Of a stretch of 64,000 nt of DNA, positions 4,159 through 35,182 are shown one piece after another (the first letter of the stretch is position 1; each line of letters starts with the position of its first letter). This stretch comes from Humidesulfovibrio mexicanus (GTDB lineage Bacteria; Desulfobacterota; Desulfovibrionia; Desulfovibrionales; Desulfovibrionaceae). The position numbers and the translations under genes were made by a program. Location of the stretch: the NCBI RefSeq assembly GCF_900188225.1, contig NZ_FZOC01000003.1:248001-312000 (forward strand), read 5' to 3'. The notes below the pieces were generated by a model that was not told the origin of the DNA, made no database searches, and saw only the letters and a list, made by a program, of their open reading frames with translations.

Positions 4159-4202
4159 TGTCCAGCGTATCCTTGCGGCGGGGGCTCAGGCCCCGCTGTC
4201 TT

Positions 4203-4916: not shown

Positions 4917-4919
4917 GGG

Positions 4920-6311: not shown

Positions 6312-6961
6312 TAGTCGCCTCCCATGCGCTGAATGGAGCGGGGCCCGAGCAGCAGGTCCATCTGCAGGCTTCCGGGGCTGTACACGTCGGACTTCCAGAA
6401 AAGCATTCCCTCCTGGTCCACCTTGAGGGGGAACTGCCAGGAGCGCGTCACCATTCCGGGGTCAAGGTCGTAATACCCGGCCGCCACGGCCAGAAACTGC
6501 GCGCCCTCGGCCCGGTCCAGCACCAGCGTGGTCTGGCTGCCGGGGCTTATGTAGCGCCGCTCGAAATGCACCACGGACTTGTCGAAGCGGTCGCAGGCCA
6601 ACAGCTTGCGGATGCCGCCCTGGTTGGCCGCCAGCTCCTCGAAGGCCGCGGTGTCGCTCAGCTGAAAGATGCACAACAGCACGTTGTGCGAGTAACCGTC
6701 GTAGCTGTTCAGCTCCGGGTCGGCGTTGAGTTCAAGGGTCAAGGCGTGCGGCGCGTAGCCCCATTTGACCGCCTGCGGGCTGTCGGCCTTCTGCGGCACT
6801 TCGTAGGGCTTGGGCGGCGGCAGCGGCGGTTTGCTGGAGCACCCGCCCGCAAGCGCGGAAGCCATGGCCAGCGCGCAGGCGAGCAAGAGCGCGGCAGACC
6901 GCGAACGGGCTGTCCGGCCTGGGCGCGGCCTTTCGGTTTTTTGCGCAGCGGCGCTTGGCAT
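6311..6961 (-). CDS. tssJ: Type VI secretion outer-membrane lipoprotein TssJ
   Basis: A 216-aa lipoprotein. A basic N-region (RPGRTARSRS) precedes a hydrophobic core and the lipobox ending ALAGGC, with lipidation expected on the Cys at about residue 41. The mature part carries the SciN/VasD-type beta-sandwich pattern, including VVHFERRYISPG and LAVAAGYYDLD. TssJ anchors TssM to the outer membrane. The N-region is long for a signal peptide, so an internal start is possible. The gene is followed without a gap by tssK. Confidence 0.93.
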   Translation of the reverse strand: MPSAAAQKTERPRPGRTARSRSAALLLACALAMASALAGGCSSKPPLPPPKPYEVPQKADSPQAVKWGYAPHALTLELNADPELNSYDGYSHNVLLCIFQLSDTAAFEELAANQGGIRKLLACDRFDKSVVHFERRYISPGSQTTLVLDRAEGAQFLAVAAGYYDLDPGMVTRSWQFPLKVDQEGMLFWKSDVYSPGSLQMDLLLGPRSIQRMGGD

Positions 6962-6994
6962 CAGCGTATTCCTCCAGCCATTCTTCTCGCTACC

Positions 6995-13216: not shown

Positions 13217-13229
13217 GCTGCTGTTCCGG

Positions 13230-13646
13230 TTATTCCATGACCGTGATGCGGCCGTCGGGGTTCAGGATGGTTTCGAACACCACCGGGGTTTGTCTGCCCT
13301 CGCCCGTGAGCCGCGCCGAGAGGCGGAAGGCCAGCGAGAAGGGCCGGTCGGCCTGGGGCTCGAAGCTCACCTTCACCCCGCTCAGACGGGGTTCGTAGCG
13401 CAGGATGACGGCGGTGATGGCTTCCTCCACCTGGCCGACGCTTTCCGCGCCAAAGGTGCTGGCGATGGAGGTGAAGTCCGGCACGCCGTAGTCCTGGGCG
13501 ATGGGCGCGCTGCCCTGCCGGGTGTTGAGCATCTTGGCGATGTGCTCCAGCACCGAGCGCACGCCAGCCGCCGGGTCCGCGCCGCCGCGCCAGTCGGGGT
13601 TGAGCTCCACCGCCCGCAGGCGCTCAAGAAGCCTTTTTTCGCGCAT
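13230..13646 (-). CDS. tssE: Type VI secretion baseplate protein TssE (gp25-like)
   Basis: A 138-aa gp25/W-family protein that initiates sheath polymerisation on the baseplate. Visible family features are the N-terminal LLERLRAVE, the central block SVLEHIAKMLNTRQGSAPIA and the following DYGVPDF; the R and G of this region belong to the conserved gp25 core. The C-terminal half is a short beta-rich domain (LSARLTGEGRQTPVVFET). It lies 70 nt after hcp, separated by a strong GC hairpin that may set the expression ratio. Confidence 0.95.
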   Translation of the reverse strand: MREKRLLERLRAVELNPDWRGGADPAAGVRSVLEHIAKMLNTRQGSAPIAQDYGVPDFTSIASTFGAESVGQVEEAITAVILRYEPRLSGVKVSFEPQADRPFSLAFRLSARLTGEGRQTPVVFETILNPDGRITVME

Positions 13647-13675
13647 CGAGCCAGGATCTCCCCGTGTTCACGCAG

Positions 13676-13707
13676 GCGCGGGCGCGCCGTTTCCAGCGCG
13701 CCCGCGC
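13676..13707 (-). terminator. Perfect 12-bp GC hairpin between hcp and tssE
   Basis: Arms at 13676-13687 and 13696-13707 are exact reverse complements (GCGCGGGCGCGC) with an 8-nt loop. It sits 10 nt past the hcp stop and has no U-run, so it is more likely a partial terminator or 3' mRNA stabiliser than a full stop. Such an element would allow more Hcp than downstream baseplate protein to be made. The effect is inferred. Confidence 0.55.
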
Positions 13708-13716
13708 ATGTCTCGG

Positions 13717-14196
13717 TTAGCCTTTCCAGTTGTCCACGTACTCGATGTTGCCGTCGGTGTAGGTCCACGTGATCTTGGAGTAGGTGAAGGAGACGTCCTC
13801 CATGTCGTGGTAGGGCTTGTTCTCCGGCAGGAAGGTGAGCGGGCTGTATTCGCGCAGGCTCACCACGATGGCCTCCTCCATCTTGACCGTGTAGTACTTC
13901 TGCTCCCGGCCGGTGGGGTCGATGCGGTAGTAATCCAGGGTGATGGTGCACTGTTCGCCGGTGCAGCAGGCCTTGAACAGCTTGGGGCTGGCCTGGTCCT
14001 TGTGCTTGGTCACGGTGAAGGGGTGGTGCACGCGCTGGCCCGTGGGCAGGCCGGTGTGCGTGTCCTTCGGGATTTCCACGGTGTGGTCTGAGCCGTAGAC
14101 GAGGATCTTGTCCTTTTTGTCGCCGCTTTGCGAGCCGTCGCCCTTGATGTCTCCCTGGGTGTTGCCCTTCACTGCCATGTACGCGATCAGAGCCAT
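13717..14196 (-). CDS. hcp: Type VI secretion tube protein Hcp (TssD)
   Basis: A 159-aa Hcp that forms the hexameric rings of the secreted inner tube. It shows the beta-barrel family pattern: AYMAVKGNTQGDIKG at the start, HHPFTVTKHKDQASPKL in the middle and a C-terminal EDVSFTYSKITWTYT strand pair. A Cys pair (CC at about 92) is unusual but not unknown. No C-terminal toxin extension is present, so it is a structural Hcp. A strong ribosome-binding site (AAGGAGG) precedes the ATG. It lies 40 nt after tssC. Confidence 0.98.
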   Translation of the reverse strand: MALIAYMAVKGNTQGDIKGDGSQSGDKKDKILVYGSDHTVEIPKDTHTGLPTGQRVHHPFTVTKHKDQASPKLFKACCTGEQCTITLDYYRIDPTGREQKYYTVKMEEAIVVSLREYSPLTFLPENKPYHDMEDVSFTYSKITWTYTDGNIEYVDNWKG

Positions 14197-14236
14197 GGGA
14201 AATCCTCCTTGATGCGGGGGTTGCGGTTATGGGACG

Positions 14237-15718
14237 TTATTCCTTGTCCAGCTTGCCGACGAGGGAAAGGGTGAAGCTTGCGCCCATGTACTTGAAATGC
14301 GGCCGGGCCTTGAGCGTTACCGAATACCAGCCCGGATCGCCCGCCACATCGTTGACCTCGATCTTGGCCAGGCGCAGGGGCCGCTTGCTGCGGGTGGTGG
14401 GGTCGGGATTGTCCATCTCGGTCACGTACTGGCTCACCCACTTGTTCAACTCGCTTTCCAGGTCGGTGCGCTCCTTCCAGGTGCCGATGTTCTCGCGCTG
14501 GATGACCTTCACGTAGTGGGCCAGGCGGTTCATGATCATCATGTAGGGCAGTTGGGTGCTGAGCTTGAAGTTGAGCTCTGCCTCCTTGCCCTCGGGCGTG
14601 TTGGCGAAGACCTTGCCCTTCTGGGCGGAGTTGGCGGAGAAGAAGGCCGCGTTGTCCGAACCCTTGCGCATGGTCAGCGCGATGAAGCCCTCTTCGGCCA
14701 GTTCGTATTCGCGCCGTTCGCTGATGAGCACCTGCGTGGGGATCTTGGTCTGGGTCTGGCCCATGGCCTCGAACTGGTACAGGGGCAGGTTCTCCACCGC
14801 GCCGCCGCCCTGCGGGCCGATGATGTTGGCGCACCAGCGGTATTTTGCGAAGCTGTCCGTAAGGCGCGAGGCGAAAGCGAAGGCCGTGTTGCCCCAGCAG
14901 AAGTCCTCGTTGTCCTCGGCGGTCTCCTGGAAGTTGAAGCTCTTGGCCGGCACGGTGTTGGCCCCGTAGGGCAGCCGGAGCAGGAACTTGGGCAGGGTCA
15001 GCCCCACGTAGCGGGCATCCTCGCTCTCCCGGAAGCTTCTCCACTTGGCGTACTGGGGCATCTCGAAGATGGAGTGCAGGTCCTTCAGGTTGGGCAGCTC
15101 CTCCCAGGACTCGACGCCGAAGAACTCCTTGCCCGCCGCGGCGATGAAGGGCGCGTGGGCCATGGCCGAGGCCGAGGCCACGTACTGCAGAAGCTCCACG
15201 TCCTGGGGGCCGGGGCCGAAGTCGTAGTTGGCCACCATGGCCCCTATGGGCTGGCCGCCGAACTGGCCGTATTCGGCCGTGTAGATCTGCTTGTACAGGC
15301 CGCTTTTCACCACCTCCATGGAGTCCTGGAAGTCGGCCAGCAGGTCCTCCTTGGACACGTTCATGAACTCCACCTTCACGTTCTGGCGAAAGTCCGTGCG
15401 GTCCACCAGGAACTTCAGCGAGCGCCATGCGCCCTCCAGTTTCTGGAACTGCTCGTCGTGCATGATGGCGTTGACCTGGGAGGAGAGCTTGCGGTCGATC
15501 TCGGCCAGCATGTCGTCCACCTGCGCGCCGGAGACCTTGGCCTCGCCGCCGGTCTGCACCAGCTGGGCCAGGAAGGCCTGCAAACCCGCCTTGGTGGCGG
15601 CGAAGCCCTCGTCCGTGGGTTTGAGCTTGGAGGCCTCCACGATCTCGTCGAGGAGGCTTGGGCCTTCCCCGGTCTGGGCGGCCTGTGCTGCCGATGTCTG
15701 GAGCTGTTCGTCTGCCAT
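14237..15718 (-). CDS. tssC: Type VI secretion sheath large subunit TssC (VipB)
   Basis: A 493-aa sheath protein. The family's central blocks are clear: LEGAWRSLKFLVDRTDF, YDFGPGPQDVELLQ, and the C-terminal region containing KERTDLESELNKWVSQYV. TssC dimerises with TssB and polymerises around the Hcp tube to form the contractile sheath. It starts 13 nt after the tssB stop, so the two partners are likely produced together. No anomalies are visible. Confidence 0.98.
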   Translation of the reverse strand: MADEQLQTSAAQAAQTGEGPSLLDEIVEASKLKPTDEGFAATKAGLQAFLAQLVQTGGEAKVSGAQVDDMLAEIDRKLSSQVNAIMHDEQFQKLEGAWRSLKFLVDRTDFRQNVKVEFMNVSKEDLLADFQDSMEVVKSGLYKQIYTAEYGQFGGQPIGAMVANYDFGPGPQDVELLQYVASASAMAHAPFIAAAGKEFFGVESWEELPNLKDLHSIFEMPQYAKWRSFRESEDARYVGLTLPKFLLRLPYGANTVPAKSFNFQETAEDNEDFCWGNTAFAFASRLTDSFAKYRWCANIIGPQGGGAVENLPLYQFEAMGQTQTKIPTQVLISERREYELAEEGFIALTMRKGSDNAAFFSANSAQKGKVFANTPEGKEAELNFKLSTQLPYMMIMNRLAHYVKVIQRENIGTWKERTDLESELNKWVSQYVTEMDNPDPTTRSKRPLRLAKIEVNDVAGDPGWYSVTLKARPHFKYMGASFTLSLVGKLDKE

Positions 15719-15731
15719 GTCGCGTCTCCTC

Positions 15732-16220
15732 CTACTCGCCCTTTATGCCCAGTTCCTGGAGCAGCCGTTCGCGCGCGCCGGGGTCCTTCACCAGCTCCTG
15801 CACCTTTTTGCGGAACTCCGGCACGTTGGCCAGAGGGCCTTTCAAGGCCTTCAGGGCCTCGCGCAGCTCCATGAGCTTGGCCAGCTCCGGCACGTTGCGC
15901 ACAATGGCGTCCGGGTCGAAGTCCTTGAGGCTCTCGAACTTCATGTGCATGGCCAACTGGTCGTCCTCCTTGCCGGAGAGGCGATTGGGCACGTTGAGCG
16001 AAAGCTCCAGCCCCTGGCCCTTGAGCACGTCGTTGAAGTTGTCCTTGTCCACGGACACGGGGTCGCGGTTTTCCACCATGCGGTCATCGGGCTTGAGGGT
16101 GAAGTCCCCCAGCACCATGAGCTTGAGGGGCAGCTCGACCTCTTCCTTGGCGTCGCCGGTGGCCGGCCTGTACACGATGTTCACCCGCTCCTTGGGGGCG
16201 ACGGAACCTTCCTGCGCCAT
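15732..16220 (-). CDS. tssB: Type VI secretion sheath small subunit TssB (VipA)
   Basis: The frame is open further upstream, but the ATG at 16220 is preceded by a good Shine-Dalgarno (AAGGAGGAG) and gives 162 aa, the family size. The protein carries the TssB signature RVNIVYRPATGDA near the N-terminus, ELPLKLMVLGDFT, and MHMKFESLKDFDPDAIV. TssB forms the sheath protomer with TssC; the ClpV contact helix is normally on TssC. It lies 79 nt after tssA and just ahead of tssC. Confidence 0.97.
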   Translation of the reverse strand: MAQEGSVAPKERVNIVYRPATGDAKEEVELPLKLMVLGDFTLKPDDRMVENRDPVSVDKDNFNDVLKGQGLELSLNVPNRLSGKEDDQLAMHMKFESLKDFDPDAIVRNVPELAKLMELREALKALKGPLANVPEFRKKVQELVKDPGARERLLQELGIKGE

Positions 16221-16299
16221 GATGCTCCTCCTTGCCAAACGTGCGGATTCTGCGTGAGCCGGAGCGCATTGGCCCCGGCGGTCCAATTCGTTGCGGGCC

Positions 16300-17817
16300 T
16301 TAGCCCGAAAGGTGCAGCGCGGCCGAGGGCCGGATGCGCGCCGCCCGTGACGCGTAGGCCCCTGCCCTGGCCGGGGCGTCGTCGCCGCCCTGGCCCAGCA
16401 CGGCCTCCCGCGCGGCGAGAAAGGTCTCCACCGCCAATTCCGGGTCCCAGTCCTCCAGGCCTCGGCGCTCCACCTCGGCCACGGCCTCCTCGGCCAGGCT
16501 TGTGGCCAGCGGCCAGTGCCCGGCCCGGCACAAAAGCGACATCTGCGCCAGGGACAGCCGGAGCCGGGTGGGGCCGTCGTCAGCCTGGCGCGAGGCCTGC
16601 CCCAGCAAATCCAGTGCTCCGGCCACGTCCTGCCGTTCGAAAAGCGCCTCGGCCTCGGCCCTGGCCTTGGCGGCCTCGCCGCGCGCCGGGCGCGTTGCCG
16701 CGTCCGGGCGGGGGGGCGCGCCTTGGATCCCGGCGAGCCAGTCCAGGGTCTCGGCATCGGCAAAGGGCGTGCCGTCGGCGAAGCTCAGGCGCTCCAGGCC
16801 GGGCAGATGCGCAAGCAGGAGCCCCAGTTCGGCCAGCACGGCCTCGCGGGCGGCGGCGTAGTCCGACCCCAGGGCTTCCAGGGCCTGGACCGCCACCCGG
16901 TGCGGGTCGAGCCAGAACAGATGCTCGGGGATCTGCTCCTCGGCGGTCTGGGCGGCCAGCAGAAAGTTGCCCTGGTCCAGCAGGCTCAGCAGGGCGGCCT
17001 TCACCGCCGGGTCCGGCGGGGGCAGCAGGGTGCGGCCGTTTTCCTCGGGCGGCAGGCCGCCGATGCGCAACCAGGCGGCGATGCGCGTGGCCCGCCAGGC
17101 CCAGGGGTCGGCTGGGGTCTCGCGTCCGGCCAGGGCGGCGAAGGTGCGCGCGGCCTCGGCCAGGACGGCGCGCGCGTCCTCGGCGTTTGCGGGGGCGGTG
17201 TTCTGGGGCTGGGCGGCCTGCCGGGGCGTGGTCTGGCCGCTTTCACCGGCCGGGGGCTGCGGCGCTGGAGCCGCCTCGGCCTGGACAGGAACCCGCGAGA
17301 GGACCTCCAGCAGGTCGCGCAGGGGCGGCAGGTCGGGCAAGAGCCCGCTCAGGGTCTGGTCCAGGGCGCGCACGGCCTCCATGAGGGTAAGGTGGGCCTG
17401 GGCGGGCAGAGGGGGGAGATCCTGGGCGTTCTTGAGCCAGGCGAGACATTTTTCCTGCCACCAGGAGAATGCGGCCATGCGTCCGCGCAGGCGGTTTTTG
17501 GGCGGCGTGCAGGAGTCCCAGAAGGTTGCGGCCATGTCGCGCAGGATGCGCGCGCCGGTGCCCAATCCTTCCAGGCCGCGAGTTTGGGTGAGGCCAACGC
17601 CCAGGTAGGCCGCGGCCGTGAGGTCCTTTGCCGTGGTGGAGAGCACCTCCGCAGCCAGGTCCACCACGCGGGCCCAGTCCACCGCGCCTGCGGCGGTGAT
17701 GGAGGAGAGTTTGTCGATCTCGGCCTTGAGCTGGACGAAGGCTGGCTCGAACTGCGCGGTCTGCCAATCCCTGGCAGGGCCGGGAAGAGGCGCGCGTCCG
17801 ATGTCGTCCAGATTCAT
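16300..17817 (-). CDS. tssA: Type VI secretion assembly protein TssA (ImpA N-domain, VasJ-like C-domain)
   Basis: The start is placed at the ATG at 17817 behind GGAGAG, giving 505 aa beginning MNLDDIGRAPLPGP. The N-terminal third is the ImpA domain that caps the growing tube-sheath (YLGVGLTQTRGLEGLG, ending near MAAFSWWQEK). A Pro/Ala/Gln-rich linker follows, and a helical VasJ-like C-terminal region (LAQMSLLCRAGHWPLATSLAEEAV) ends the protein. TssA coordinates recruitment of the tail to the baseplate. It is the first gene of the visible operon. Confidence 0.92.
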   Translation of the reverse strand: MNLDDIGRAPLPGPARDWQTAQFEPAFVQLKAEIDKLSSITAAGAVDWARVVDLAAEVLSTTAKDLTAAAYLGVGLTQTRGLEGLGTGARILRDMAATFWDSCTPPKNRLRGRMAAFSWWQEKCLAWLKNAQDLPPLPAQAHLTLMEAVRALDQTLSGLLPDLPPLRDLLEVLSRVPVQAEAAPAPQPPAGESGQTTPRQAAQPQNTAPANAEDARAVLAEAARTFAALAGRETPADPWAWRATRIAAWLRIGGLPPEENGRTLLPPPDPAVKAALLSLLDQGNFLLAAQTAEEQIPEHLFWLDPHRVAVQALEALGSDYAAAREAVLAELGLLLAHLPGLERLSFADGTPFADAETLDWLAGIQGAPPRPDAATRPARGEAAKARAEAEALFERQDVAGALDLLGQASRQADDGPTRLRLSLAQMSLLCRAGHWPLATSLAEEAVAEVERRGLEDWDPELAVETFLAAREAVLGQGGDDAPARAGAYASRAARIRPSAALHLSG

Positions 17818-18388: not shown

Positions 18389-19447
18389 CTATCGGCCCAG
18401 CCTGCGCTGCAAGAGGACGAAGTCCGCCAGGACCAGGGCGGCCATGGCCCCCAGCACTGGCACGATACGGGGAATGGCGCAGATGTCGTGCCGACCGCCG
18501 ATGGTGATGCTGCGCGCCTCGCCGTCGCGGCTCACGGTCCGCTGGGGCAGGGCGATGGACGGGATGGGCTTCACCGCTGCGCGGACCACGATCTCCTGCC
18601 CGCTGGACATGCCGCCCAGGATGCCGCCCGCGTTGTTGGACAGGAAGCCCTGCGGGGTGATGGGGTCGTTGTTGGCGCTGCCGGTTGCGCGCGCGCTGGC
18701 GAAGCCCGCGCCCACCTCCACGCCCTTCACCGCGCCCACGCCCATCAGCGCGCAGGCCAGGCGCGCGTCGAGCTTGTCGAACACAGGCTCGCCCAGACCG
18801 GCGGGCACGCCGCTGGCGCGGAGCTCCACCACGCCGCCCAGGGTGTCGCCCTGCGCCTTCACGGCCTGCACGCGCTCGGTCCAGGCGTCCACGGCCTCGG
18901 GGTCGGCGCTGAAAAAGGGCCGGTCCTGCGCGCCGTCGAAGTCCCTTGCCTGGGCCGGAATGCCGCCGAGTTCGATGGTGGCGGCCCGAACGACGATGCC
19001 CAGGCTGTGCAGGAAGGCCCGCGCCACGGCCCCGCCCGCCACGCGCGACACGGTTTCCCGGCCGGAGGAGCGTCCGCCGCCCCGGTAGTCGCGCAGGCCG
19101 AACTTGGCCTCGAAGCCCAGGTCCGCGTGGCCGGGGCGGAACACGTCCTTGATGGCCGAGTAGTCGCGGGAGCGTTGGTCCTCGTTCATGATGACGAAGC
19201 CGATGGGCGTGCCGGTGGTCAGCCCCTCGAACACGCCGGAGAGCAGGCGCACGGTGTCGGATTCCTTGCGGGCGGTGGCCGCGGGGCCGCCCTGGCCGGG
19301 CTTGCGGCGGTCAAGCTCGCGCTGGATGGCCTCCTCGCTTACGGCCAGGCCCGGCGGGCAGCCGTCCACCACGCCGCCCAGGCCCACGCCGTGGGACTCG
19401 CCAAAGGTGGTGAGGCGAAACAGGGTGCCGAAGGTGTTGCCGCTCAT
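18389..19447 (-). CDS. aroC: Chorismate synthase
   Basis: A 352-aa enzyme converting 5-enolpyruvylshikimate-3-phosphate to chorismate with reduced FMN. The start is the ATG at 19447, where the protein begins MSGNTFGTLFRLTTFGESHG, the classic AroC N-terminus with its active-site His. Other signatures are FRPGHADL, DYRGGGRSSGRET and the C-terminal GRHDICAIPR. The length is normal. It is the last gene of the aroL-to-aroC run, starting 14 nt after the HprK-like gene. Confidence 0.97.
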   Translation of the reverse strand: MSGNTFGTLFRLTTFGESHGVGLGGVVDGCPPGLAVSEEAIQRELDRRKPGQGGPAATARKESDTVRLLSGVFEGLTTGTPIGFVIMNEDQRSRDYSAIKDVFRPGHADLGFEAKFGLRDYRGGGRSSGRETVSRVAGGAVARAFLHSLGIVVRAATIELGGIPAQARDFDGAQDRPFFSADPEAVDAWTERVQAVKAQGDTLGGVVELRASGVPAGLGEPVFDKLDARLACALMGVGAVKGVEVGAGFASARATGSANNDPITPQGFLSNNAGGILGGMSSGQEIVVRAAVKPIPSIALPQRTVSRDGEARSITIGGRHDICAIPRIVPVLGAMAALVLADFVLLQRRLGR

Positions 19448-19461
19448 GGTGGTGCTCCTGG

Positions 19462-20658
19462 TCAGGGCTTGGGGTGCAGAAGGTCGAGACAGGCCTCCGT
19501 CGCCGCGGAGAAGATCGAGCCGCCCGAGAGCTCCAGGGTGGGCACGCCGGAAAGGGCGGCCAGACAGTCCGTTTTGGAGAGCCGCGCGCGGGCGAGGGCG
19601 TGGGGCAGGTAGAACACGCCGGGGGGCTTGCGCAGGGCCGGAAGCAGGTCCGGCCGCTCGGCGAGCGCCACCCGCCGCGCCCGCATGGGGCCGCCGCCGT
19701 GCTTCCAGTTGAGCACGGCCAAGCCGGCCAGGGGCGCGGACAGGCGGAAGCGCCCCGGCGCGCCCCTGGCGGTGCTGCGGGCTGCGGGCTTGTGGGCGCT
19801 GAAGCACTCGTCGATGATGGCGTCGAACTTGTCCTCGATGCCGTACAGGGCCTGGGGCGGCAGGTTTGCGTAAGCCGCGCGCAGCGACCGGGGCAGGGCG
19901 CGGGAGAGGAAGGGCGCCAGCTCCGGATTGCCCAGCGCGGTGCCGGGGTTCAGCCGGGGATGCTTGGGGATGCCGTGCAGCACGGGGCCGTGTCCGGGGC
20001 TTGCCGGTTCGATGAGCACGCGGTCGTTGCTCAGGAAGTCCAGTCCGCGCGCGGCCAGGTGCAGGGCCAGGGTGCTTTTGCCCATGCCCGCGAAGCCGCA
20101 CAGGGCCAGTCCGGCGCCGCCCCGGTCCAGCGGCAGGGCCACGCCCGCGGCATGGCCAAGCAGCCAGCCCTGGGCCACGCGGCGCTCCATGTAGCGCGCG
20201 CAGATGAAGTTCACCAGCTGGTTGCGGTTGGCCGCGCAGGGCCCTATGGCGATGTTCCGGGCGAGCCCGGAGGCGCTGGCCGGGCCTCCGGGGCCGAACA
20301 GAAAGAGCATCCCGGTGGCCTGCTTGCGCACCAGGCGGCCCAGCACGGCGCCGTCCGCGCCGGGGAAGTCGGCGAAACGCTCCTTGTCCGGCCGCTTGCC
20401 CGGCAGGTGCGGACGCACGGCCAGGGGCACCGGCGGCTCCTGCGCCGGGGCGTCCAGCAGCAGCACGGAGATGTCCGCCTCGGCCGCGCCGGGGCTCGCG
20501 AAGGGAGCGAAATAGGCGCGCAGATCGTCCATGACGGCCTGGGAGTTGCCCCGCACGCAGACGCTCAGCTCCTCCAGCCGCAGATGGAAGCCGAAGGAAG
20601 CGGGGAAGCGCGCGGTCCAGTCCCCGGCCAGGGCGTCGAAGCCCGGGGCGGCGCTCAC
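19462..20658 (-). CDS. HprK-related kinase B (GAK-type system)
   Basis: A 398-aa P-loop protein. The start is a GTG that overlaps the stop of the ATP-grasp gene (GTGA), giving MSAAPGFDALAG. The N-terminal half (1-170) has no recognisable motif. The C-terminal half resembles the HPr kinase/phosphorylase fold: Walker A GFAGMGKST at 188-196, then FLSNDRVLIE and a later RARRVALAERPDLL. This matches the family I know as HprK-related kinase B, always found with an ATP-grasp and an amphi-Trp protein. The substrate is unknown; a small molecule or a partner protein is possible. Membership is from resemblance. Confidence 0.8.
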   Translation of the reverse strand: MSAAPGFDALAGDWTARFPASFGFHLRLEELSVCVRGNSQAVMDDLRAYFAPFASPGAAEADISVLLLDAPAQEPPVPLAVRPHLPGKRPDKERFADFPGADGAVLGRLVRKQATGMLFLFGPGGPASASGLARNIAIGPCAANRNQLVNFICARYMERRVAQGWLLGHAAGVALPLDRGGAGLALCGFAGMGKSTLALHLAARGLDFLSNDRVLIEPASPGHGPVLHGIPKHPRLNPGTALGNPELAPFLSRALPRSLRAAYANLPPQALYGIEDKFDAIIDECFSAHKPAARSTARGAPGRFRLSAPLAGLAVLNWKHGGGPMRARRVALAERPDLLPALRKPPGVFYLPHALARARLSKTDCLAALSGVPTLELSGGSIFSAATEACLDLLHPKP

Positions 20659-21575
20659 CCGGCGAGCTCCTTGAGGGCGTAGGCGACGAAGGCCTCGGCC
20701 ACGTCGATGCCGTGGGCGGCCTTGAGGCCCCGGAACCCGCCGAAGGCCGAGACCTCGAAGACGTAGGGGCCGTCGGCGGTAAGGGCCACGTCGACGCAGG
20801 TGAAGTCCAGGCCGAAGGGCGCGCCAGCGCGCCAGGCCAGATCGATGATGTCCTGCGGGGGCTCGAAGGGGGCGTAGCGGCCGCCGCTGGCGGTGCTGGT
20901 GTTCCAGGCCGCGGGGCCGTCGTCCTGGGCGTCGGGCTCCTTGCGGCGGGCGTAGGTGCCCAGATACTGGCCGCCCAGGAAGCACACGCCCAGGTCCTGG
21001 CCGCGCAGGTCCAGGGCCTTCTGGATGTAGAGCACGGGGTTGCGCGCCTGGAAGCCCGCCACGGCCCGGACCAGCTCCGCCGCGTCCAGGGCCTCGGCGT
21101 CCACAAGGGCCATGCCGCGCGCCTTGGAGGTGAACAGGGGCTTCAGGATGGCGCGGCCGTATGCGCGCAGGGCGTCCAGGGCCTGCTCCGGGTCCTCGGT
21201 GATGGTGGTGGGCGGCAGGGGCACGCCGACGGAGGCCAGGGTGACGGTGCAGGCCAGCCGATCCACCAGCCGCAGGATGCGCGCCGGATCGGAAAACACG
21301 CGCACGCCGCGCGCCGCGGGAATCCGCAGCATCTCCAGGCGGTCGAGCATCTCCGGAGAGTAGCTCCGGGCGACTTTCTTCACGCACAGGGCGTCCAGGG
21401 CGCACAGGTCCACCGGCCGCCCCAGCTGGTCCGGGCACAGAAGCCGTCCGCCGGGCAGGTCCAGCCGGGCGCGGTCCAGGTCCACCAGAATGCGTTCCCC
21501 GGTGGCCCGGCCAACGGCGTCGGCCAGAACTTCCGAGGACCAGGCCCCGTGGATGCCCACCACTGCGATGCGCAT
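20655..21575 (-). CDS. GAK-system ATP-grasp enzyme
   Basis: A 306-aa ATP-grasp-fold ligase. The ATG at 21575 gives MRIAVVGIHGAWSSE, a pre-ATP-grasp Rossmann-like start. The ATP-grasp core shows the Lys of AILKPLFTSKARGM and a Mg-binding C-terminal block (FTCVDVALTADGPYVFEV, with the acidic V-F-E-V strand and a following Asn-lacking SAFGGFRG). The layout recalls RimK or glutathione-synthase-type enzymes, which join a carboxylate to an amine or thiol. It begins 11 nt after the PhoU fusion gene and overlaps the kinase start. The substrate is unknown. Confidence 0.85.
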   Translation of the reverse strand: MRIAVVGIHGAWSSEVLADAVGRATGERILVDLDRARLDLPGGRLLCPDQLGRPVDLCALDALCVKKVARSYSPEMLDRLEMLRIPAARGVRVFSDPARILRLVDRLACTVTLASVGVPLPPTTITEDPEQALDALRAYGRAILKPLFTSKARGMALVDAEALDAAELVRAVAGFQARNPVLYIQKALDLRGQDLGVCFLGGQYLGTYARRKEPDAQDDGPAAWNTSTASGGRYAPFEPPQDIIDLAWRAGAPFGLDFTCVDVALTADGPYVFEVSAFGGFRGLKAAHGIDVAEAFVAYALKELAG

Positions 21576-21586
21576 GGCCGCCTCCC

Positions 21587-23230
21587 CTAGTAGAACAGGA
21601 TGGGCCTGGGCAGGCGGTAGTCCTCCCAGGGCTTGCCCTGATGCGCGGCCAGGCCTTCCATCAGGTAGTGCGCGCGCTGGAACATCTCCCGCGCGAAGTC
21701 GTAGTTGAGCTCGAAACGCGTGCTGGTGGCGAAGGAGCGCGCCAGCCCCATGGCCAACCGCGCCTGCCAGGTCGCGTCGCCGATGTCGTCGGCGAAGTCC
21801 GCCGCGTAGTCGTAAAACGAGGCGATCATGTGGTTGATGCGCCGCCGCATGGCCGACTCGAACACCGGGATGCGGAAGAAGGACACCAGGAACACGGAAA
21901 CGTCCTGCACGAAGTCGCCCCGGCGGGTGCGGTGCAGGTCCACGTAGTGCACGCGCGGCGCGCCCTGGTCGAAGACGATGTTGTTGGCGTTGAAGTCGCC
22001 GTGCAGCAGCACGGTCATGGGCGCGCGCAGGGCGCCCTCGATGTCGCGGCAGCGGGCCACCAGCTCCTCCGTGCCGGGTATCGCCGCCGCGCCCAGCTGC
22101 GCGGCCTGGCGGAAAAAGTCCGGATGCACGTGGCGCACCGCGGCCATGCGCTCGGAGAGCTGGCCCATGGCGTCCAGCGGGGCCTCGCCCTTCTCCAGCG
22201 TGGAGCGCCAAATGTCGCCCACGGTCTGCTCGAAGATGAAGATGGCGTCCTCCAGCACATCCTCGGCCGCGGTGAGCACCACTTCCGTCCAGGTGCAGCC
22301 GGGCAGGAACTCCACCAGCATGGAGGCGCTGTCGCCCTCCTCGTGATAGCTGAAGATGCGCGGCCCGGTGCCCGGCGACACGCGCGCCCAGAACTCCAGG
22401 TTTTCGCGTTCGCGGCGGATCTTCTTGAGGTTGCCCTCCTTGAAGATACCGCCCTGGGCCACGTCGGACGGGGCGGCCTTGGGGCTCACCCGGCCGATGC
22501 GGCAGCCCGAGCGCGTGCCCCAGATGGAGCGGAAGTCGATGTCGCCCAGGTCGCCCTCGAAGCCGGTCTTGGAGAGGGTCTGCTGCAGGGCCTGGAACTG
22601 CTCGATCTTGATCTTCTCCCCGATGACGGAGAAGAGCAGGGCCTCGCCGATGTTCAAAAGCGAGTCGCCGATGCGCTCCAGGTAGCGGAAGATGAAGATG
22701 GCCGTGACGCCGTTCTGCACGTCGCGGCCCAGGCGCATCTCCTCCATCAGGGCGTCGAAGGCGTCCTTGTACAGGCTGTCCAGGTCGAATTCGGCCCGGC
22801 AGATGCTGAGCGCGCCCGCAACCTCGGCCCTGGAGCGCACCTCAAGGATGCGCGAAAGGCCGTCCTCGATGATGTCGAAGAGCGGGCCGGGCTTGTGCCG
22901 CGACAGCACGGAAAGATCCTTGAGGTAGCGCATCTGCCCGGCGATGTTCACGCAGTAGTCGGCGATGCGCTCCAGGTTGGCGGAGATGATCTGCACGCCG
23001 CGGATGCGGTCGATGTCGCGCTTGGAGAGGCCGCGCGCGCCATGGATGCGCGAGTAGCACTTGTCCTCCACGATGTTCTTGAGGTTGTCGATGTAGTCGT
23101 CGCGCGAGACGACCTTGTCGTACAGCTCGTGGCTGGGCGCGGCCACAAAGGCGCGCGTGTCGCTCATCTGCCCGGTGACTTCAAGCACCAGGAAGCGGAA
23201 GTTTTCCTCCAAGCCCTCCAGGGAGTTCAT
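21587..23230 (-). CDS. PhoU-domain / aminoglycoside-phosphotransferase-like kinase fusion
   Basis: A 547-aa two-part protein. Residues 1-220 form a PhoU-type helical tandem with the two metal-site motifs ERIADYCVNI (about 88-97) and ERIGDSLLNI (about 185-194). Residues 240-547 form a protein-kinase-like phosphotransferase of the APH/choline-kinase type, with the catalytic loop HGDFNANNI at 410-418 and the metal-binding YVDLHRTRRGD at 429-439. A P-loop-like stretch with Lys at about 264 precedes it. PhoU normally regulates phosphate uptake, so the fusion suggests a kinase controlled by a PhoU-like sensor. It starts 1 nt after the amphi-Trp gene and may act with the GAK enzymes. Confidence 0.85.
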   Translation of the reverse strand: MNSLEGLEENFRFLVLEVTGQMSDTRAFVAAPSHELYDKVVSRDDYIDNLKNIVEDKCYSRIHGARGLSKRDIDRIRGVQIISANLERIADYCVNIAGQMRYLKDLSVLSRHKPGPLFDIIEDGLSRILEVRSRAEVAGALSICRAEFDLDSLYKDAFDALMEEMRLGRDVQNGVTAIFIFRYLERIGDSLLNIGEALLFSVIGEKIKIEQFQALQQTLSKTGFEGDLGDIDFRSIWGTRSGCRIGRVSPKAAPSDVAQGGIFKEGNLKKIRRERENLEFWARVSPGTGPRIFSYHEEGDSASMLVEFLPGCTWTEVVLTAAEDVLEDAIFIFEQTVGDIWRSTLEKGEAPLDAMGQLSERMAAVRHVHPDFFRQAAQLGAAAIPGTEELVARCRDIEGALRAPMTVLLHGDFNANNIVFDQGAPRVHYVDLHRTRRGDFVQDVSVFLVSFFRIPVFESAMRRRINHMIASFYDYAADFADDIGDATWQARLAMGLARSFATSTRFELNYDFAREMFQRAHYLMEGLAAHQGKPWEDYRLPRPILFY

Positions 23231-23231
23231 C

Positions 23232-23504
23232 TCAGGCCTCTATTTTGAGGGTGTTCCCCTGCTTGGGGGTTTCCTCCTCCGGGCAGCGCCAGGAGATGGT
23301 CAGCGAAAGCCGCCCCGCGCCGCCGCGCTTGCGCGCCTTGACGGCGAAGGTCAGCAGCTCACGCGGCTGGAGCACGAATTCCTCCTGCCCGGCGCTCACC
23401 ACCAGCCGCCCCTTGTGCAGCCCCTCCATCACCGCCTCCAGGTACTGCCGAATGCTCTCGGCGTCCTGTATGGATTCGAACACGAATTTCTGGTCGTAGC
23501 CCAT
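23232..23504 (-). CDS. Amphi-Trp domain protein (GAK system)
   Basis: A 90-aa protein with the look of the amphi-Trp family. A short N-terminal strand (KFVFESIQ) leads into an amphipathic helix (IRQYLEAVMEGLHKG), then two beta strands alternating hydrophobic and polar residues (RLVVSAGQEEFVLQP, LLTFAVKARKR) and a final strand ending in a conserved Trp (LSLTISWRC). It may be a small binding or scaffold protein. The start is supported by a strong GGGGGAGG site. It is the small partner that defines the GAK gene set; its function is unknown. Confidence 0.8.
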   Translation of the reverse strand: MGYDQKFVFESIQDAESIRQYLEAVMEGLHKGRLVVSAGQEEFVLQPRELLTFAVKARKRGGAGRLSLTISWRCPEEETPKQGNTLKIEA

Positions 23505-23521
23505 GCGCCCTCCCCCGGTGC

Positions 23522-24661
23522 CTAGCCGTCCAGCCGGGCGGCGTATTCCTCGATGACGCGCGCGCGGTCCATGTCGGCCACGATGAGTTTCTTGCCGATG
23601 GCGAGGTCGTCCCATGCGGGCTGCAGACCGATCTCGCGCCGGGCCTTGGCCGGATCGCTGACGGCCAAGGTCTTTTCGCCCATGTGGGTGTCGTCGCCCA
23701 TGAACACCAGCATTCGCCGCTCGCCGTCGCGGCGCAGGCGGTTCTTCTCGCACAAGACGGAGATGAGGAACTCCGTGTAGCGCTGGGACTGCGGGTTCCA
23801 GACCTCGTAGCCGTCCACGTCGTAGTTGGCCAGCAGAATGGGCCAGAACTGCTCCGGGTGGGGAATGACCACTCCGCCGCCAAGGCCCCGGACTTCCTCG
23901 ATGAATTCCGATGTGCGGTAGAAATAGGTGAGGGGGAAGCGCGCCTTGACCACGGCCTTGACCTCTTTCAGGAACACCTGCACGCGGTTGGCCAGGGCGT
24001 TGCCCAAGACCGGGCGCTGGCCCTCCACGAAGTTGCGCACCAGCTTGTTTTTGATGGCGTCCACCGGGATGCTGCCCTCGTGCTTTTCCAGCAGGGCGGC
24101 AAGCTTCAGGCAGCAGGCCCGCGCGCAGGCCACCACGGCCTCGTCCGAGCCGGACTCCCGCGCGGCCAGGGCCAAGCGCTCTTCGTCGGGTTTGGTCACG
24201 GTGAACAGATAGTCGAACAGCTGGCCCGAGCGGTAGGCGTGGGTGTGGGCCAACATGCTTTTGAGCACATGGGCATCGCCCATGCGTTCGGTGCGGAAGT
24301 GCAGCAAAAGCTGCACCTTCTGGTTGAAGCCACGGGAGTAGCAGTCCACCTCCACCCCGGAATAGGGTCCGTACTCCAGCAGTTGGTTATGCTGGGTGGG
24401 AATGATGAGGCTTGTGCGCATGGCCGGGTAGCTGGCCTCGATGCGCTGGCGGAGCAGGTCCATGGGCACGTGCTCCGGGTGCCAGTGCACGGCCAGCACG
24501 GACTGCTGCGCGGGCATGACCACGCCCGGCGTGCGGATGCGTTCGCGCATGGCCGCATCGAGCGTGGTGTCCACCAGGACGGCGAAGAGCCGCTCGTCCG
24601 CCTCGGTGACCTCCGCCGTCAACCCGGCCGCCAGACCGTCGAGATCGAAATCTGCCGTCAT
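23522..24661 (-). CDS. Unknown protein of the GAK-type cluster, PHP-like C-terminal features
   Basis: A 379-aa protein I do not recognise as a named family. The ATG at 24661 follows AAGGAG. Soluble, with no signal peptide or membrane helix. Notable blocks are an internal His-rich segment (LAHTHAYRSGQLF), a Cys-rich helix (ACARACCLKL), and a C-terminal region VVIPHPEQFW then GYEVWNPQS and FMGDDTHMGEK. The GYEVWNPQS block recalls the strand that closes the metal site of PHP-type phosphoesterases, so a metal-dependent hydrolase is conceivable, but the usual N-terminal HxH of that fold is not in its normal place. It lies between the XXXCH and amphi-Trp genes with gaps of 50 and 17 nt. Confidence 0.8.
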   Translation of the reverse strand: MTADFDLDGLAAGLTAEVTEADERLFAVLVDTTLDAAMRERIRTPGVVMPAQQSVLAVHWHPEHVPMDLLRQRIEASYPAMRTSLIIPTQHNQLLEYGPYSGVEVDCYSRGFNQKVQLLLHFRTERMGDAHVLKSMLAHTHAYRSGQLFDYLFTVTKPDEERLALAARESGSDEAVVACARACCLKLAALLEKHEGSIPVDAIKNKLVRNFVEGQRPVLGNALANRVQVFLKEVKAVVKARFPLTYFYRTSEFIEEVRGLGGGVVIPHPEQFWPILLANYDVDGYEVWNPQSQRYTEFLISVLCEKNRLRRDGERRMLVFMGDDTHMGEKTLAVSDPAKARREIGLQPAWDDLAIGKKLIVADMDRARVIEEYAARLDG

Positions 24662-24711
24662 GCATGGCTCCTTGTCCCGCGTGGCGGGGCGTTCTGTATC
24701 GGCCGGCCGTT

Positions 24712-25356
24712 TCAACGATACTGCGCGTGGCAGGCGCTTCTGCGCCGTGCAAGGCGCGCCAGAACCTGGGCACAGGCCGACACGTCGCGCGCGTCGAACG
24801 CCCGGCGCAGGGACTGCGCGTCCTCCAGAAAAGCGGTGTTGCCCCGGGCCAGCTCCCCTGCCTCCGGCCCGTGCGCGTCCTTCACCGGCTGCGGCAGCGC
24901 GGCCATGCCCTCGGCCAGGGCCAGGAAGGACTCCAGCGTGTCGCGCTGCGGCACAGCCCCGGCTTCGACGGCGCGCGACAGGGCCGAAAAGTCCGCCTGC
25001 AGGGCCTTTTTGAGCTGGCGGTACTTCTCGCGCGCCAGGGCCTGGGCCTCGCCGGGCCGGGGGCTGGCGGCTTTCCCCGGCGCTCTCGCGGCCATCTGGC
25101 TCCCGGCCGGAACAGGATTCTTGCCCTGCGTGCGCGCCTGCCCGGCCGTGATCCGCACGGCAAACCCGCCGTCCTCCCGCGCCTCGGCCACCAGTTCCAG
25201 CCGCTGCGCGGACCCCTGGCCACAAAAGGGCTGCACTCCGGCGAAGTCGCCGCCAGCGCGCCGATCCCCCGCGCCCTCCAGGGCGTCGGCCAGGTCGCGC
25301 AGCACACGCGGCAATCCGCCCGCGTCCACGTTCTTTTCATACATCCACGGGCACAT
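24712..25356 (-). CDS. XXXCH-type protein of the GAK system
   Basis: A 214-aa helical protein. An N-terminal part (1-70) contains beta-strand-like LELVAEARE and an amphi-Trp-like look; a basic, Pro/Ala-rich linker follows; and the C-terminal 110 residues are predicted helices with regular Leu and Lys spacing. It ends SACHAQYR, so a Cys-His pair lies six residues from the end, the trait that names the XXXCH family. Such a pair could bind haem or a metal, but only one CH is present and no signal peptide is visible. The start at 25356 has GGAGG close by; a second ATG four codons later is an alternative. It starts 40 nt after aroL. Confidence 0.72.
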   Translation of the reverse strand: MCPWMYEKNVDAGGLPRVLRDLADALEGAGDRRAGGDFAGVQPFCGQGSAQRLELVAEAREDGGFAVRITAGQARTQGKNPVPAGSQMAARAPGKAASPRPGEAQALAREKYRQLKKALQADFSALSRAVEAGAVPQRDTLESFLALAEGMAALPQPVKDAHGPEAGELARGNTAFLEDAQSLRRAFDARDVSACAQVLARLARRRSACHAQYR

Positions 25357-25396
25357 GGGGCCTCCGCGTCGTCACGGCCGGGGCCGCGCCGCCATG

Positions 25397-25960
25397 CTAC
25401 GAGATTCGGCCCCGCCCGGCAACCGCGGCCTTGTCGCCGCCGATGCGCGCCACCTCGGCCAAGGCCAGGTCCAGCAGGTCGTCCAGGGGGGCCTCCGCCG
25501 GGAGCACCGCGTGGGCGCAGGAGAGATACACGGCCCCGCGCTCCGCGAGCACCCGCGCGATCTCCTCCGCCACGCCGCCGCCCGTGAGCGATGGCCGCTG
25601 GGCCTCCAGGGGGTTGCGCAAAAGCCGCTCGGCCAGCGCCTCGGGCGAGGCTTTCAAATAGAGCACGATGCCGCCGGAGAGCCTATGGCGGTTCTCCTCG
25701 CGCAGCACAATGCCCCCCCCGCAGGACACCACCTGGCCGGAGAACATGGCCACTTCGGCCAGCGCCACGCTCTCGGCGTCGCGGAAGGCCTCCCAGCCGC
25801 CCGCGTCCACCAGTTCGGCCACGCTTTTGCCCGTGCGCAGGCGCACCCGCGCATCCGTGTCCACAAAGGGCCGCCGGAGCCTGGCCGCCAATTTCCTGCC
25901 TAGCGTGGTCTTGCCGCTTGCGCGCGCGCCGATGAGATAGATGTTCCGCTCGCCCGACAT
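25397..25960 (-). CDS. aroL: Shikimate kinase
   Basis: A 187-aa P-loop kinase that phosphorylates shikimate at O3. Walker A GARASGKT lies at 11-18, followed by the DTD shikimate-binding motif (FVDTDARV) and the GGG motif (VVSCGGGIV) with its Arg downstream. LRNPLEAQRPSLT is the lid region. The symbol aroL rather than aroK is tentative. It is divergent from the YchF-like gene (180-nt gap) and heads the run that ends with aroC, so two shikimate-pathway genes flank the GAK genes. Confidence 0.93.
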   Translation of the reverse strand: MSGERNIYLIGARASGKTTLGRKLAARLRRPFVDTDARVRLRTGKSVAELVDAGGWEAFRDAESVALAEVAMFSGQVVSCGGGIVLREENRHRLSGGIVLYLKASPEALAERLLRNPLEAQRPSLTGGGVAEEIARVLAERGAVYLSCAHAVLPAEAPLDDLLDLALAEVARIGGDKAAVAGRGRIS

Positions 25961-26140
25961 GCCTTGCGCCTCCCCATGCGGGCAAAGGCCCGCGCAAGGC
26001 CCTCTTACGGCAAATCCGGTCCGGAGACAAACGGCCGTCCTCCCGCGCGGGGCATCACGCCTTGCATACGGCCGCGCTTGCGCCTAGGATGTTCCACTTC
26101 CGGGCGCTTGCCGCCCGCATCCCACACGCAAGGAACTGCA

Positions 26141-27154
26141 ATGAAAACCGCTATTTTTGGCTTCTCCGGCTCCGGCAAGACCGACATGTTCGCCGCCCTG
26201 GCGGGCGAAAAGGCCGCAGGCGCGGGCAACCGCGCCATGGTCAAGGTGCCCGAGCCCCGCCTGGACCCGCTCATCAAGCTGTTCACCCCCAAGAAGATCA
26301 CCTTGAGCGAAATCGAATACCTGGACGTGCCCGGCGGCGGCGGCAAGGGCCATGGCCTGGGCGAGCGCGTGTTGAACGACATCCGCCCGTACGACTGCCT
26401 GCTGTGCGTGCTGGACGCCTTTACCGGCCTTTCCGACCCCAGGCAGCAATTCGGCGCGGTTGAGGCCGACCTGCTGGTGAGCGACCTGGCCGTGGTGGAG
26501 AAGCGCCAGGAGCGCATGGCCCTGGACAAGCGCAAGAACGCCAGCCTGGTGGACGCCAAGGAGGAGGAGTGCCTGGCCAAGGCCCGCGCCCTGCTGGAGG
26601 ACGAGAAGCCTCTGCGCCTGGACCCGGCCCTGTGCGCCGAGCCCGCCATGCGCGGCTTCCGTTTCCTGTCCGCCAAGCCCATTCTCTACGCGTGGAACGT
26701 GGCCGAAACCGCCATGGACTCCTTCGAGGTCCCGGCCGATGCGCCGGGCCAGATGCACATGAGCGTGTCCGCCCGGCTTGAACGCGAGCTGGCCGCCATC
26801 ATCGACCCCGAGGAGCGCGCCATGTTCCTGACCGACCTGGGCCTTACGGAGAGCGCGCTCGACAAGGTCATTTCGCGCACCTACAAGCTGCTCGGCCTCA
26901 TGAGCTTCCTCACCGCCGGGGACAAGGAGGTGCGCTCCTGGCCGGTGCGCGTGGGCGCAACCGCCCCGGAGGCCGCGGGCGTCATCCACACCGACTTCCA
27001 GAAGGGCTTCATCCGCGCGGAGGTCATCGGCTACCAGGACTTCCTCAGGGCCGGGGACTTCAAGAAGGCCAAGGAGCTCGGCCTTGCCCGCCTGGAAGGC
27101 AAGGAGTACGTCGTGCAGGATGGCGACATCATCGAATTCCGTTTCAACGTCTAG
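26141..27154 (+). CDS. YchF/Obg-like GTPase
   Basis: A 337-aa protein, slightly shorter than classical YchF (about 363). The ATG at 26141 gives MKTAIFGFSGSGKT with the P-loop at 7-14. The switch region contains EYLDVPGGGGKGHG, matching the YchF G3 motif with Pro in place of Ala. A coiled stretch follows, and the C-terminal 80 residues are a TGS-like/DUF933 domain (HTDFQKGFIRAEVIGYQDF), diagnostic of this group. YchF proteins hydrolyse ATP or GTP and associate with ribosomes. The shorter length and altered G-motifs suggest a divergent paralogue rather than the housekeeping copy. Confidence 0.9.
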   Translation: MKTAIFGFSGSGKTDMFAALAGEKAAGAGNRAMVKVPEPRLDPLIKLFTPKKITLSEIEYLDVPGGGGKGHGLGERVLNDIRPYDCLLCVLDAFTGLSDPRQQFGAVEADLLVSDLAVVEKRQERMALDKRKNASLVDAKEEECLAKARALLEDEKPLRLDPALCAEPAMRGFRFLSAKPILYAWNVAETAMDSFEVPADAPGQMHMSVSARLERELAAIIDPEERAMFLTDLGLTESALDKVISRTYKLLGLMSFLTAGDKEVRSWPVRVGATAPEAAGVIHTDFQKGFIRAEVIGYQDFLRAGDFKKAKELGLARLEGKEYVVQDGDIIEFRFNV

Positions 27155-35172: not shown

Positions 35173-35182
35173 ATGCCTGCCC

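What the first reader, a model, noticed from the sequence alone, without database searches (positions are those of the whole stretch)
18389..25960. GAK-type kinase/ATP-grasp cluster sits between aroL and aroC as one operon
Six uncharacterised genes (XXXCH protein, 379-aa unknown, amphi-Trp, PhoU-kinase fusion, ATP-grasp, HprK-related kinase) lie on one strand between two shikimate-pathway genes, with gaps of 1 to 50 nt and two start-stop overlaps. The seen facts are order, spacing and motifs. The family knowledge is that ATP-grasp, amphi-Trp and HprK-like proteins co-occur in Desulfovibrio with no known function. The inference is that they form a modification system which joins, phosphorylates or stores a small molecule or peptide, perhaps linked to aromatic synthesis or phosphate status.
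Basis: partly seen in the sequence, partly recalled or inferred. Interest (0 to 1): 0.85.

Follow-up and report, generated by a model that had tools for sequence, protein, structure and literature searches.

The report
Phosphate-linked GAK operon captured by aro
A six-gene bacterial enzyme cluster of unknown function, which elsewhere often carries the DNA switch used to respond to phosphate shortage, has in this genus an extra copy that sits inside an aromatic amino acid operon and lacks that switch, so phosphate stress is the first place to look for what the cluster does.

Summary
aroL, six genes and aroC lie on one strand with gaps of 1 to 50 nt; there is one 4-nt overlap, not two. Four of the six match NCBIfam families of the "GAK" group above cut-off. 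The fifth is a PhoU-APH kinase fusion, and the 379-aa "unknown" is predicted to fold as a PHP-type phosphoesterase.

The aro link looks positional. aroL and aroC are an older neighbouring pair, and GAK lies between them in only two genera seen here.

The phosphate link is well supported for the family. A PhoB box (YGTNAC-N5-YGTNAC) precedes 45 of 110 GAK operons that are neither aro-linked nor behind phoU, against 10 of 360 control genes. In several lineages GAK follows pstSCA, pstSCAB-phoU or phoBR-pstB-phoU on the same strand.

The window's genome carries both forms. A canonical eight-gene copy elsewhere has a perfect PhoB box; the aro copy has no box and no CofD gene. In this genus (Humidesulfovibrio) the box is present in 13 of 13 canonical rows (10 distinct loci) and 0 of 21 aro rows (13 distinct loci).

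Best reading: a phosphate-limitation kinase/ligase module of unknown substrate, whose core was captured by the aro operon outside Pho control. No published function turned up in the searches run.

The parts
25397..25960 (-). aroL, shikimate kinase; first gene of the operon
   Evidence: NF002988 176.5 bits over cut-off 161
24712..25356 (-). XXXCH protein: N-terminal amphi-Trp-like domain plus C-terminal four-helix domain of cytochrome c'/b562 type with a conserved Cys-His
23522..24661 (-). 379-aa protein, predicted PHP-superfamily phosphoesterase; no Pfam or NCBIfam match
23232..23504 (-). amphi-Trp domain protein, 90 aa
   Evidence: TIGR04354 60.7 bits, PF20068 32.7 bits
21587..23230 (-). PhoU domain fused to an APH-type small-molecule kinase
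   Evidence: PF01895 80.4 bits, PF01636 33.8 bits; 78 of 80 conserved columns kept, among them HGDxNxxN
20655..21575 (-). GAK system ATP-grasp enzyme, RimK/LysX/MptN-like
   Evidence: TIGR04356 381.2 bits; nearest solved chains 3vpd and 1uc8; 67 of 67 conserved columns kept
19462..20658 (-). HprK-related kinase B; GTG start overlapping the ATP-grasp stop by 4 nt
   Evidence: TIGR04355 336.1 bits; P-loop kept, 62 of 67 conserved columns kept
18389..19447 (-). aroC, chorismate synthase; last gene of the operon
   Evidence: NF003793 447.4 bits, PF01264 439.4 bits
25357..25396 (-). aroL-XXXCH gap, 40 nt; g29 copies carry a PhoB box in the corresponding gap; no box here
   Evidence: best score 7 of 10 in the whole 18389-26260 stretch; L083 and L118

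Best explanation
The six genes are a core copy of the GAK system, a multi-enzyme module that in many lineages belongs to the phosphate-limitation (Pho) regulon, here captured by an older aroL-aroC operon. Shown by computation: (1) about half of the GAK locus clusters examined have a PhoB box before the operon or a Pho or P-free-lipid gene beside it, and some are joined to pst/phoU/phoBR genes on one strand; (2) the window copy lacks the box, the CofD-like gene and the second amphi-Trp gene that the genome's other copy has, yet keeps nearly all conserved columns under purifying selection, so its expression should follow the aro promoter rather than phosphate. Inferred: the PhoU domain reports phosphate status to its fused kinase; the RimK/LysX-like enzyme joins an amino acid (probably acidic) to a small acceptor, perhaps one of the small amphi-Trp/XXXCH proteins or a metabolite; the two kinases phosphorylate acceptor or partner, and the PHP-type enzyme removes phosphate. 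The aro genes are hosts of the copy, not its pathway.
For: PhoB box (YGTNAC-N5-YGTNAC, at least 9 of 10 positions, within 300 nt): 45 of 110 GAK operons (19 perfect), against 10 of 360 operon-initial genes of 40 control windows (0 perfect), 1.8% of 2,200 Markov shuffles, 0 of 21 aro rows and 0 of 4 directly behind phoU. Spacer 5 is specific: 45 of 135, against 0-10 of 135 for spacers 2-4 and 6-9. In Humidesulfovibrio 13 of 13 canonical rows against 0 of 21 aro rows. The own-genome canonical copy has a perfect box 83 nt before XXXCH. After collapsing at 85% identity, 34 of 98 clusters have the box, 14 of 98 have pst/phoU/phoB genes within 7 kb, and 48 of 98 have a box or any Pho or lipid marker; 1 of 40 control windows has any marker. 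pstS-pstC-pstA-GAK (L136) and pstS-C-A-B-phoU-GAK (L150) run on one strand, with the Pst and PhoU families confirmed. aroL and aroC lie on one strand within 20 kb in 66 of 94 hand-copied genomes, and 28 of the 94 have gaps under 150 nt. dN/dS of the six genes 0.13-0.42 against L039 and 0.25-0.54 against L037. Agt-like gene in 64 of 72 GAK+ and 15 of 77 GAK- genomes; OlsF-like in 63 of 72 and 27 of 77.
Against: 65 of 110 non-aro operons show no box at this threshold. Other operon-initial genes in the same GAK loci have the box in 47 of 634 (23 perfect), above the control windows, in part perhaps because they share intergenic regions with GAK, agt or olsF. pst/phoU/phoB proximity alone (14 of 98 clusters) is only modestly above 1 of 40 controls. 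The box was derived in D. vulgaris and no binding was tested here. In the window copy 5 of 67 HprK-B columns and 2 of 80 PhoU-kinase columns differ from the canonical residue. The origin of the aro copy is unresolved, as gene trees disagree. The ATP-grasp has Ser where RimK/LysX have the motif Asn, so ligase chemistry is not certain.
Confidence: 0.62

Rival explanations
1. The aro location is functional: GAK modifies, stores or consumes a shikimate or chorismate pathway metabolite, or tunes AroL/AroC, in this genus.
For: 9 of 9 same-genus genomes keep the aroL-aroC spacing that holds GAK; tight spacing; purifying selection similar to aroL and aroC; aroL also lies near GAK in g37 and g43.
Against: aroL-aroC are close neighbours in many genera with no room for GAK between; GAK lies elsewhere in most loci read; the aroL-GAK-aroC order was seen in only two genera; g29 copies keep their own PhoB box between aroL and XXXCH.
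Confidence: 0.1
2. GAK is a signalling system, not a biosynthetic one: PhoU-kinase, HprK-like kinase and YvcK-like protein form a phosphate/carbon relay comparable to HprK-Crh-YvcK (that comparison is recalled).
For: PhoU fusion; HprK relation; the CofD-like protein's only other NCBIfam hit is YvcK, not F420 CofD.
Against: Does not need an ATP-grasp ligase or a PHP-type phosphoesterase; the window copy and g26 copies are kept without a CofD gene beside them.
Confidence: 0.27
3. GAK takes part in phosphate-free membrane remodelling beside Agt (PHP plus glycosyltransferase) and OlsF.
For: OlsF-like gene beside canonical GAK in several relatives; OlsF near 8 and Agt-like near 12 of 98 clusters; co-occurrence; OlsF-like found in 5 of 5 genus members with the canonical copy and 0 of 4 without; in D. 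alaskensis G20 genes of these kinds make the replacement lipids (PMC5193443, section 18 read).
Against: No lipid enzyme among the GAK proteins themselves; in the window's own genome the OlsF-like gene lies on another contig; genomes with agt and olsF but no GAK exist.
Confidence: 0.18
4. The PhoB boxes serve neighbouring genes such as agt or olsF, and GAK itself is not Pho-regulated.
For: 21 of 45 boxes have no same-strand gene just upstream, so sharing with a divergent gene is possible there.
Against: 24 of 45 boxes lie behind a same-strand gene (3 of the 24 are called ORFs under 60 aa), among them the aroL-XXXCH gap of L083 and L118; boxes start a median of 130 nt before the GAK start codon; GAK is also joined to pst/phoU on one strand in several lineages.
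Confidence: 0.06

Closest known systems
GAK system as named in NCBIfam (TIGR04356, TIGR04357, TIGR04358 by title; TIGR04354 and TIGR04355 grouped with them from recall)
   Same: Four of these five marker families exceed their cut-offs here, in the usual gene order
   Different: No CofD-like gene at this locus; placed between aroL and aroC; no PhoB box
Canonical GAK copy in the same genome (L032, G000:C7)
   Same: Same six-gene order, 34-60% identity for five of the six genes and 29% over part of XXXCH
   Different: It adds CofD-like and a second amphi-Trp gene, and has a perfect PhoB box 83 nt before XXXCH
PHP phosphoesterases such as 3o0f, RNase AM (9etk, 7ug9) and 2yb1
   Different: No detectable sequence match in PDB, Pfam or NCBIfam
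Cytochrome c' and b562
   Same: Fold of the XXXCH C-terminal domain and, for cytochrome c', the sequence of its last helix with CHxxYK
   Different: No Cys three residues before the conserved Cys-His; fused to an amphi-Trp-like domain; no haem shown
RimK/LysX/MptN ligases
   Same: ATP-grasp sequence relatives
   Different: Ser276 aligned to the Asn of E-V-N in 3vpd
HprK/YvcK regulatory proteins
   Same: HprK-like kinase P-loop; CofD/YvcK-like protein in canonical operons
   Different: Below HprK and YvcK cut-offs; coupled to PhoU, ATP-grasp and PHP-type proteins

Membership tests
GAK system (NCBIfam) | GAK-type ATP-grasp enzyme (TIGR04356) | tested here: met
   381.2 bits, cut-off 300
GAK system (NCBIfam) | amphi-Trp protein (TIGR04354) | tested here: met
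   60.7 bits, cut-off 31
GAK system (NCBIfam) | HprK-related kinase B (TIGR04355) | tested here: met
   336.1 bits, cut-off 200
GAK system (NCBIfam) | XXXCH protein (TIGR04358), an associated marker | tested here: met
   54.5 bits, cut-off 40
GAK system (NCBIfam) | CofD-like protein (TIGR04357) in the same locus, an associated marker that I take not to be part of the acronym (reading recalled) | tested here: not met
   Absent from the window locus; the genome's only match is at the second locus, C7; also absent from g26 loci that hold the core. I therefore file the locus as a variant, not a full system
Pho regulon member | PhoB box upstream (window copy) | tested here: not met
   best 7 of 10 in 18389-26260
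Pho regulon member | PhoB box upstream (canonical copy of the same genome) | tested here: met
   10 of 10, 83 nt before XXXCH in L032
Pho regulon member | induction at low phosphate | not testable with these tools
   no expression data
PHP phosphoesterase (379-aa protein) | PHP fold | tested here: met
PHP phosphoesterase (379-aa protein) | sequence-profile match to a PHP family | tested here: not met
   no Pfam, NCBIfam or PDB sequence match; hhalign against the PHP domain of the Agt-like proteins not significant
PHP phosphoesterase (379-aa protein) | metal-ligand histidines and acids | tested here: inconclusive
   H59, H61, E63, H91, E104, H121, H268, D324, H326 invariant; their assignment to PHP ligands is by motif and recall
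Cytochrome c'/b562 (XXXCH C-terminus) | four-helix fold with C-terminal haem-ligand His | tested here: met
Cytochrome c'/b562 (XXXCH C-terminus) | two-Cys CXXCH haem attachment of cytochrome c' | tested here: not met
   no Cys at the first position in the alignment
Cytochrome c'/b562 (XXXCH C-terminus) | bound haem | not testable with these tools
   needs protein
APH-type kinase | HGDxxxxN catalytic motif (motif recalled) | tested here: met
   H410 G411 D412 N414 N417 conserved, kept in the window copy; PF01636 33.8 bits, cut-off 23.2
RimK/LysX ligase | E-x-N motif (metal role recalled) | tested here: not met
   E274-V-S276 in GAK proteins, aligned to E-V-N of 3vpd
HPr kinase (HprK) | Pfam Hpr_kinase_C above cut-off | tested here: not met
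   20.1 bits, cut-off 33.3

The most novel reading that the evidence does not exclude
GAK is an unrecognised phosphate-limitation pathway in Desulfobacterota and a few other phyla: a PhoU-gated kinase, an amino acid ligase and a PHP-type phosphoesterase build and recycle an unknown phosphorylated conjugate, with a protein of cytochrome c' fold (XXXCH, apparently cytosolic) tying it to redox or gas state. In Humidesulfovibrio a second core copy has escaped Pho control by moving into the aro operon, so both forms run in one cell under different signals.
Probability: 0.15. Interest if true: 0.88.

Novelty: new variant of a known kind. Interest (0 to 1): 0.6.

Why it matters
The GAK system is named in annotation, but the library searches for its family names and for Desulfovibrio with ATP-grasp and HprK returned no paper that describes it. 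Placing it in the Pho regulon gives it a growth condition, a regulator and an assay. The paired copies in one genus, one with a PhoB box and one without, allow a direct test of what phosphate control does for the system. It also separates what looks like an accidental gene neighbour (aro) from an informative one (pst/phoU).

Tried and rejected
Aro as pathway partner: rejected as main reading, because the aroL-aroC pair is older than the GAK placement. F420-like chemistry (CofD plus ligase): weakened, because the CofD-like protein's other family hit is YvcK, F420 CofD is not listed, and the window copy lacks it. LysW-type carrier idea (recalled): no conserved C-terminal Glu was evident in the amphi-Trp or XXXCH alignments; left as a weak lead. 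Amphi-Trp as fatty-acid-binding fold: E 0.007 only, not used. Spacer-4 reading of the PhoB box: 7 of 135 against 45 of 135 for spacer 5. PHP relation by hhalign: not significant; the fold comparison decided it. Single or double insertion into aroL-aroC: the full-set concatenated tree, the subset tree and the single-gene trees place the aro copy differently, and IQ-TREE timed out; unresolved. Glucose diphosphate granules of D. gigas as product: recalled only, no paper found, not used. Foldseek search of the PDB: not accepted in three tries because the machine was busy; VIA-align, which re-aligns Foldseek's top chains, was used instead. Published fitness data for GAK genes: none found; in the main text of the phosphate-limitation study the terms ATP-grasp and CofD do not occur (passages and section 18 read, not the whole text), and whether that strain has GAK was not established.

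Limits of the controls: the 40 control windows are round-number positions that I picked on large contigs of 20 genomes, two each, with gene calls from a self-trained model. For one search, 6 of the 96 OlsF matches (all weaker than E 1e-4.6, i.e. 1e-5 to 1e-6) were not counted, and no genome reached the curated OlsF cut-off (0 of 149), hence 'OlsF-like'; Agt-like means a match to one PHP-glycosyltransferase at E 1e-60.
Full report
WHAT IS THERE. Minus-strand genes run aroL, XXXCH, a 379-aa protein, amphi-Trp, PhoU-kinase, ATP-grasp, HprK-B, aroC with gaps of 40, 50, 17, 1, 11, -4 and 14 nt. Two of the same-genus genomes share contig lengths with records titled Humidesulfovibrio (G134/L103 and G098/L112; others carry looser titles such as Desulfocurvus or Proteobacteria), so I call the genus Humidesulfovibrio.

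TWO COPIES IN ONE GENOME. A family search found grasp_GAK above cut-off in 72 of 149 family genomes, and two copies in the window's own genome. The second (L032) is XXXCH, 379-type, amphi-Trp, PhoU-kinase, ATP-grasp, HprK-B, CofD-like, second amphi-Trp, the commonest order in the loci read from other genera. Among nine same-genus genomes, all nine have the aro copy and five also have the canonical copy; CofD-like is found in exactly those five. The other four (three 99-100% complete, one 87%) show only the CofD-less form.

THE ARO LINK. aroL and aroC lie on one strand within 20 kb in 66 of 94 genomes and 19 of 33 genera, and 28 of the 94 have gaps under 150 nt (hand-copied). In genus g29, two genomes have aroL, GAK with CofD, trkH, trkA, aroC (L083, L118), while a third (G060) has only a 2.17-kb aroL-aroC gap, about the size of trkH plus trkA. 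So the pair is older and GAK came between. g29 copies keep a perfect PhoB box between aroL and XXXCH; the Humidesulfovibrio copies do not. Whether g1 and g29 share one insertion is unresolved. The aro copy is one long-branched clade. The window copy keeps 90 of 90 conserved columns in the 379-aa protein, 67 of 67 in ATP-grasp, 78 of 80 in PhoU-kinase and 62 of 67 in HprK-B; dN/dS of the six genes is 0.13-0.42 against L039 and 0.25-0.54 against L037.

THE PHOSPHATE LINK. The D. vulgaris PhoB box is a direct repeat of (c/t)GT(n)AC (PMC3333781, passages read). The paper gives a 4-bp spacer; with the period of 11 that I found instead (spacer 5), the score is at least 9 of 10 upstream of PhoB in 11 of 11 rows, OlsF-like in 71% of 14, Agt-like in 54% of 13, and unlabelled genes in 6% of 784. 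For the first GAK gene: 45 of 110 operons that are neither aro-linked nor directly behind phoU, 19 perfect; control windows 10 of 360, 0 perfect; Fisher 5e-23, treating rows as independent, which they are not. Other operon-initial genes inside the same GAK loci score in 47 of 634, 23 perfect. After collapsing at 85% identity, 34 of 98 clusters have the box. Other spacings give 0 to 10 of 135. In Humidesulfovibrio it is 13 of 13 canonical against 0 of 21 aro rows (10 and 13 distinct loci), with no aro row above 7, also upstream of aroL (20 of 21 rows had that sequence) or inside it. The window has no site of 9 or more in the operon; its only two are at 31789 and 58091.

Operon fusions agree. 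L047, L090, L094 and L095 have phoB, a phoR-like kinase, pstB and phoU directly before GAK on the same strand. L136 has pstS, pstC, pstA then GAK; L150 has pstS, C, A, B, phoU then GAK; L129 and L168 are similar with an ArsC-like gene and another ORF between. pst/phoU/phoB lie within 7 kb in 14 of 98 clusters; any Pho or lipid marker in 26 of 98 against 1 of 40 control windows. An OlsF-like gene is a neighbour of canonical GAK in several Humidesulfovibrio, though not in the window's own genome, and a PHP-glycosyltransferase that I take for Agt lies on the other side. In D. alaskensis G20 genes of these two kinds make the phosphorus-free lipids at low phosphate (PMC5193443, abstract, passages and section 18 read).

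HOW IT PROBABLY WORKS. Shown: Pho-type boxes on many canonical operons, absence of box and CofD in the aro copy, conserved catalytic motifs. Inferred: PhoU senses phosphate status; kinase, ligase and phosphoesterase act on one small acceptor; the aro copy runs constitutively. The substrate is unknown.

KNOWN OR NEW. GAK is a named annotation family, so membership is not new; the phosphate assignment, the PHP-type and cytochrome-type assignments and the Pho-free aro variant were not seen in the papers that my searches listed (listings only).

Noticed in passing
window 589-17817: Type VI secretion operon on the minus strand just downstream of aroC (IcmF-related, ClpV-like AAA, VipB-type sheath).
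   Followed up: partly
window 26141-27154: YchF-type GTPase divergent from aroL; the same flank in the aro copies with sequence there and in g29.
   Followed up: partly
window 32006-38299: Likely type I restriction-modification genes (HsdM confirmed) with a transposase-type HTH fragment beside them.
   Followed up: no
window 45554-52653: CobN/Mg-chelatase type large subunit with a chelatase-type ATPase and VWA partner.
   Followed up: no
G061:C21 56100-57200 (L037): The HprK-B gene of this aro copy has one in-frame stop and is called in two pieces.
   Followed up: no
L063, L064, L065, L081: In genus g41 the system is split: ATP-grasp with one HprK-B, phosphotransacetylase- and acetate kinase-like genes (by eye) and CofD at one locus, XXXCH to PhoU-kinase with a second HprK-B at another.
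   Followed up: partly
L049, L050, L101: P-type cation ATPase next to reduced GAK cores.
   Followed up: no
L135, L159, L166, L169: GAK-type loci in MAG contigs labelled Phycisphaerae, Zixiibacteriota and Nitrospirae.
   Followed up: no
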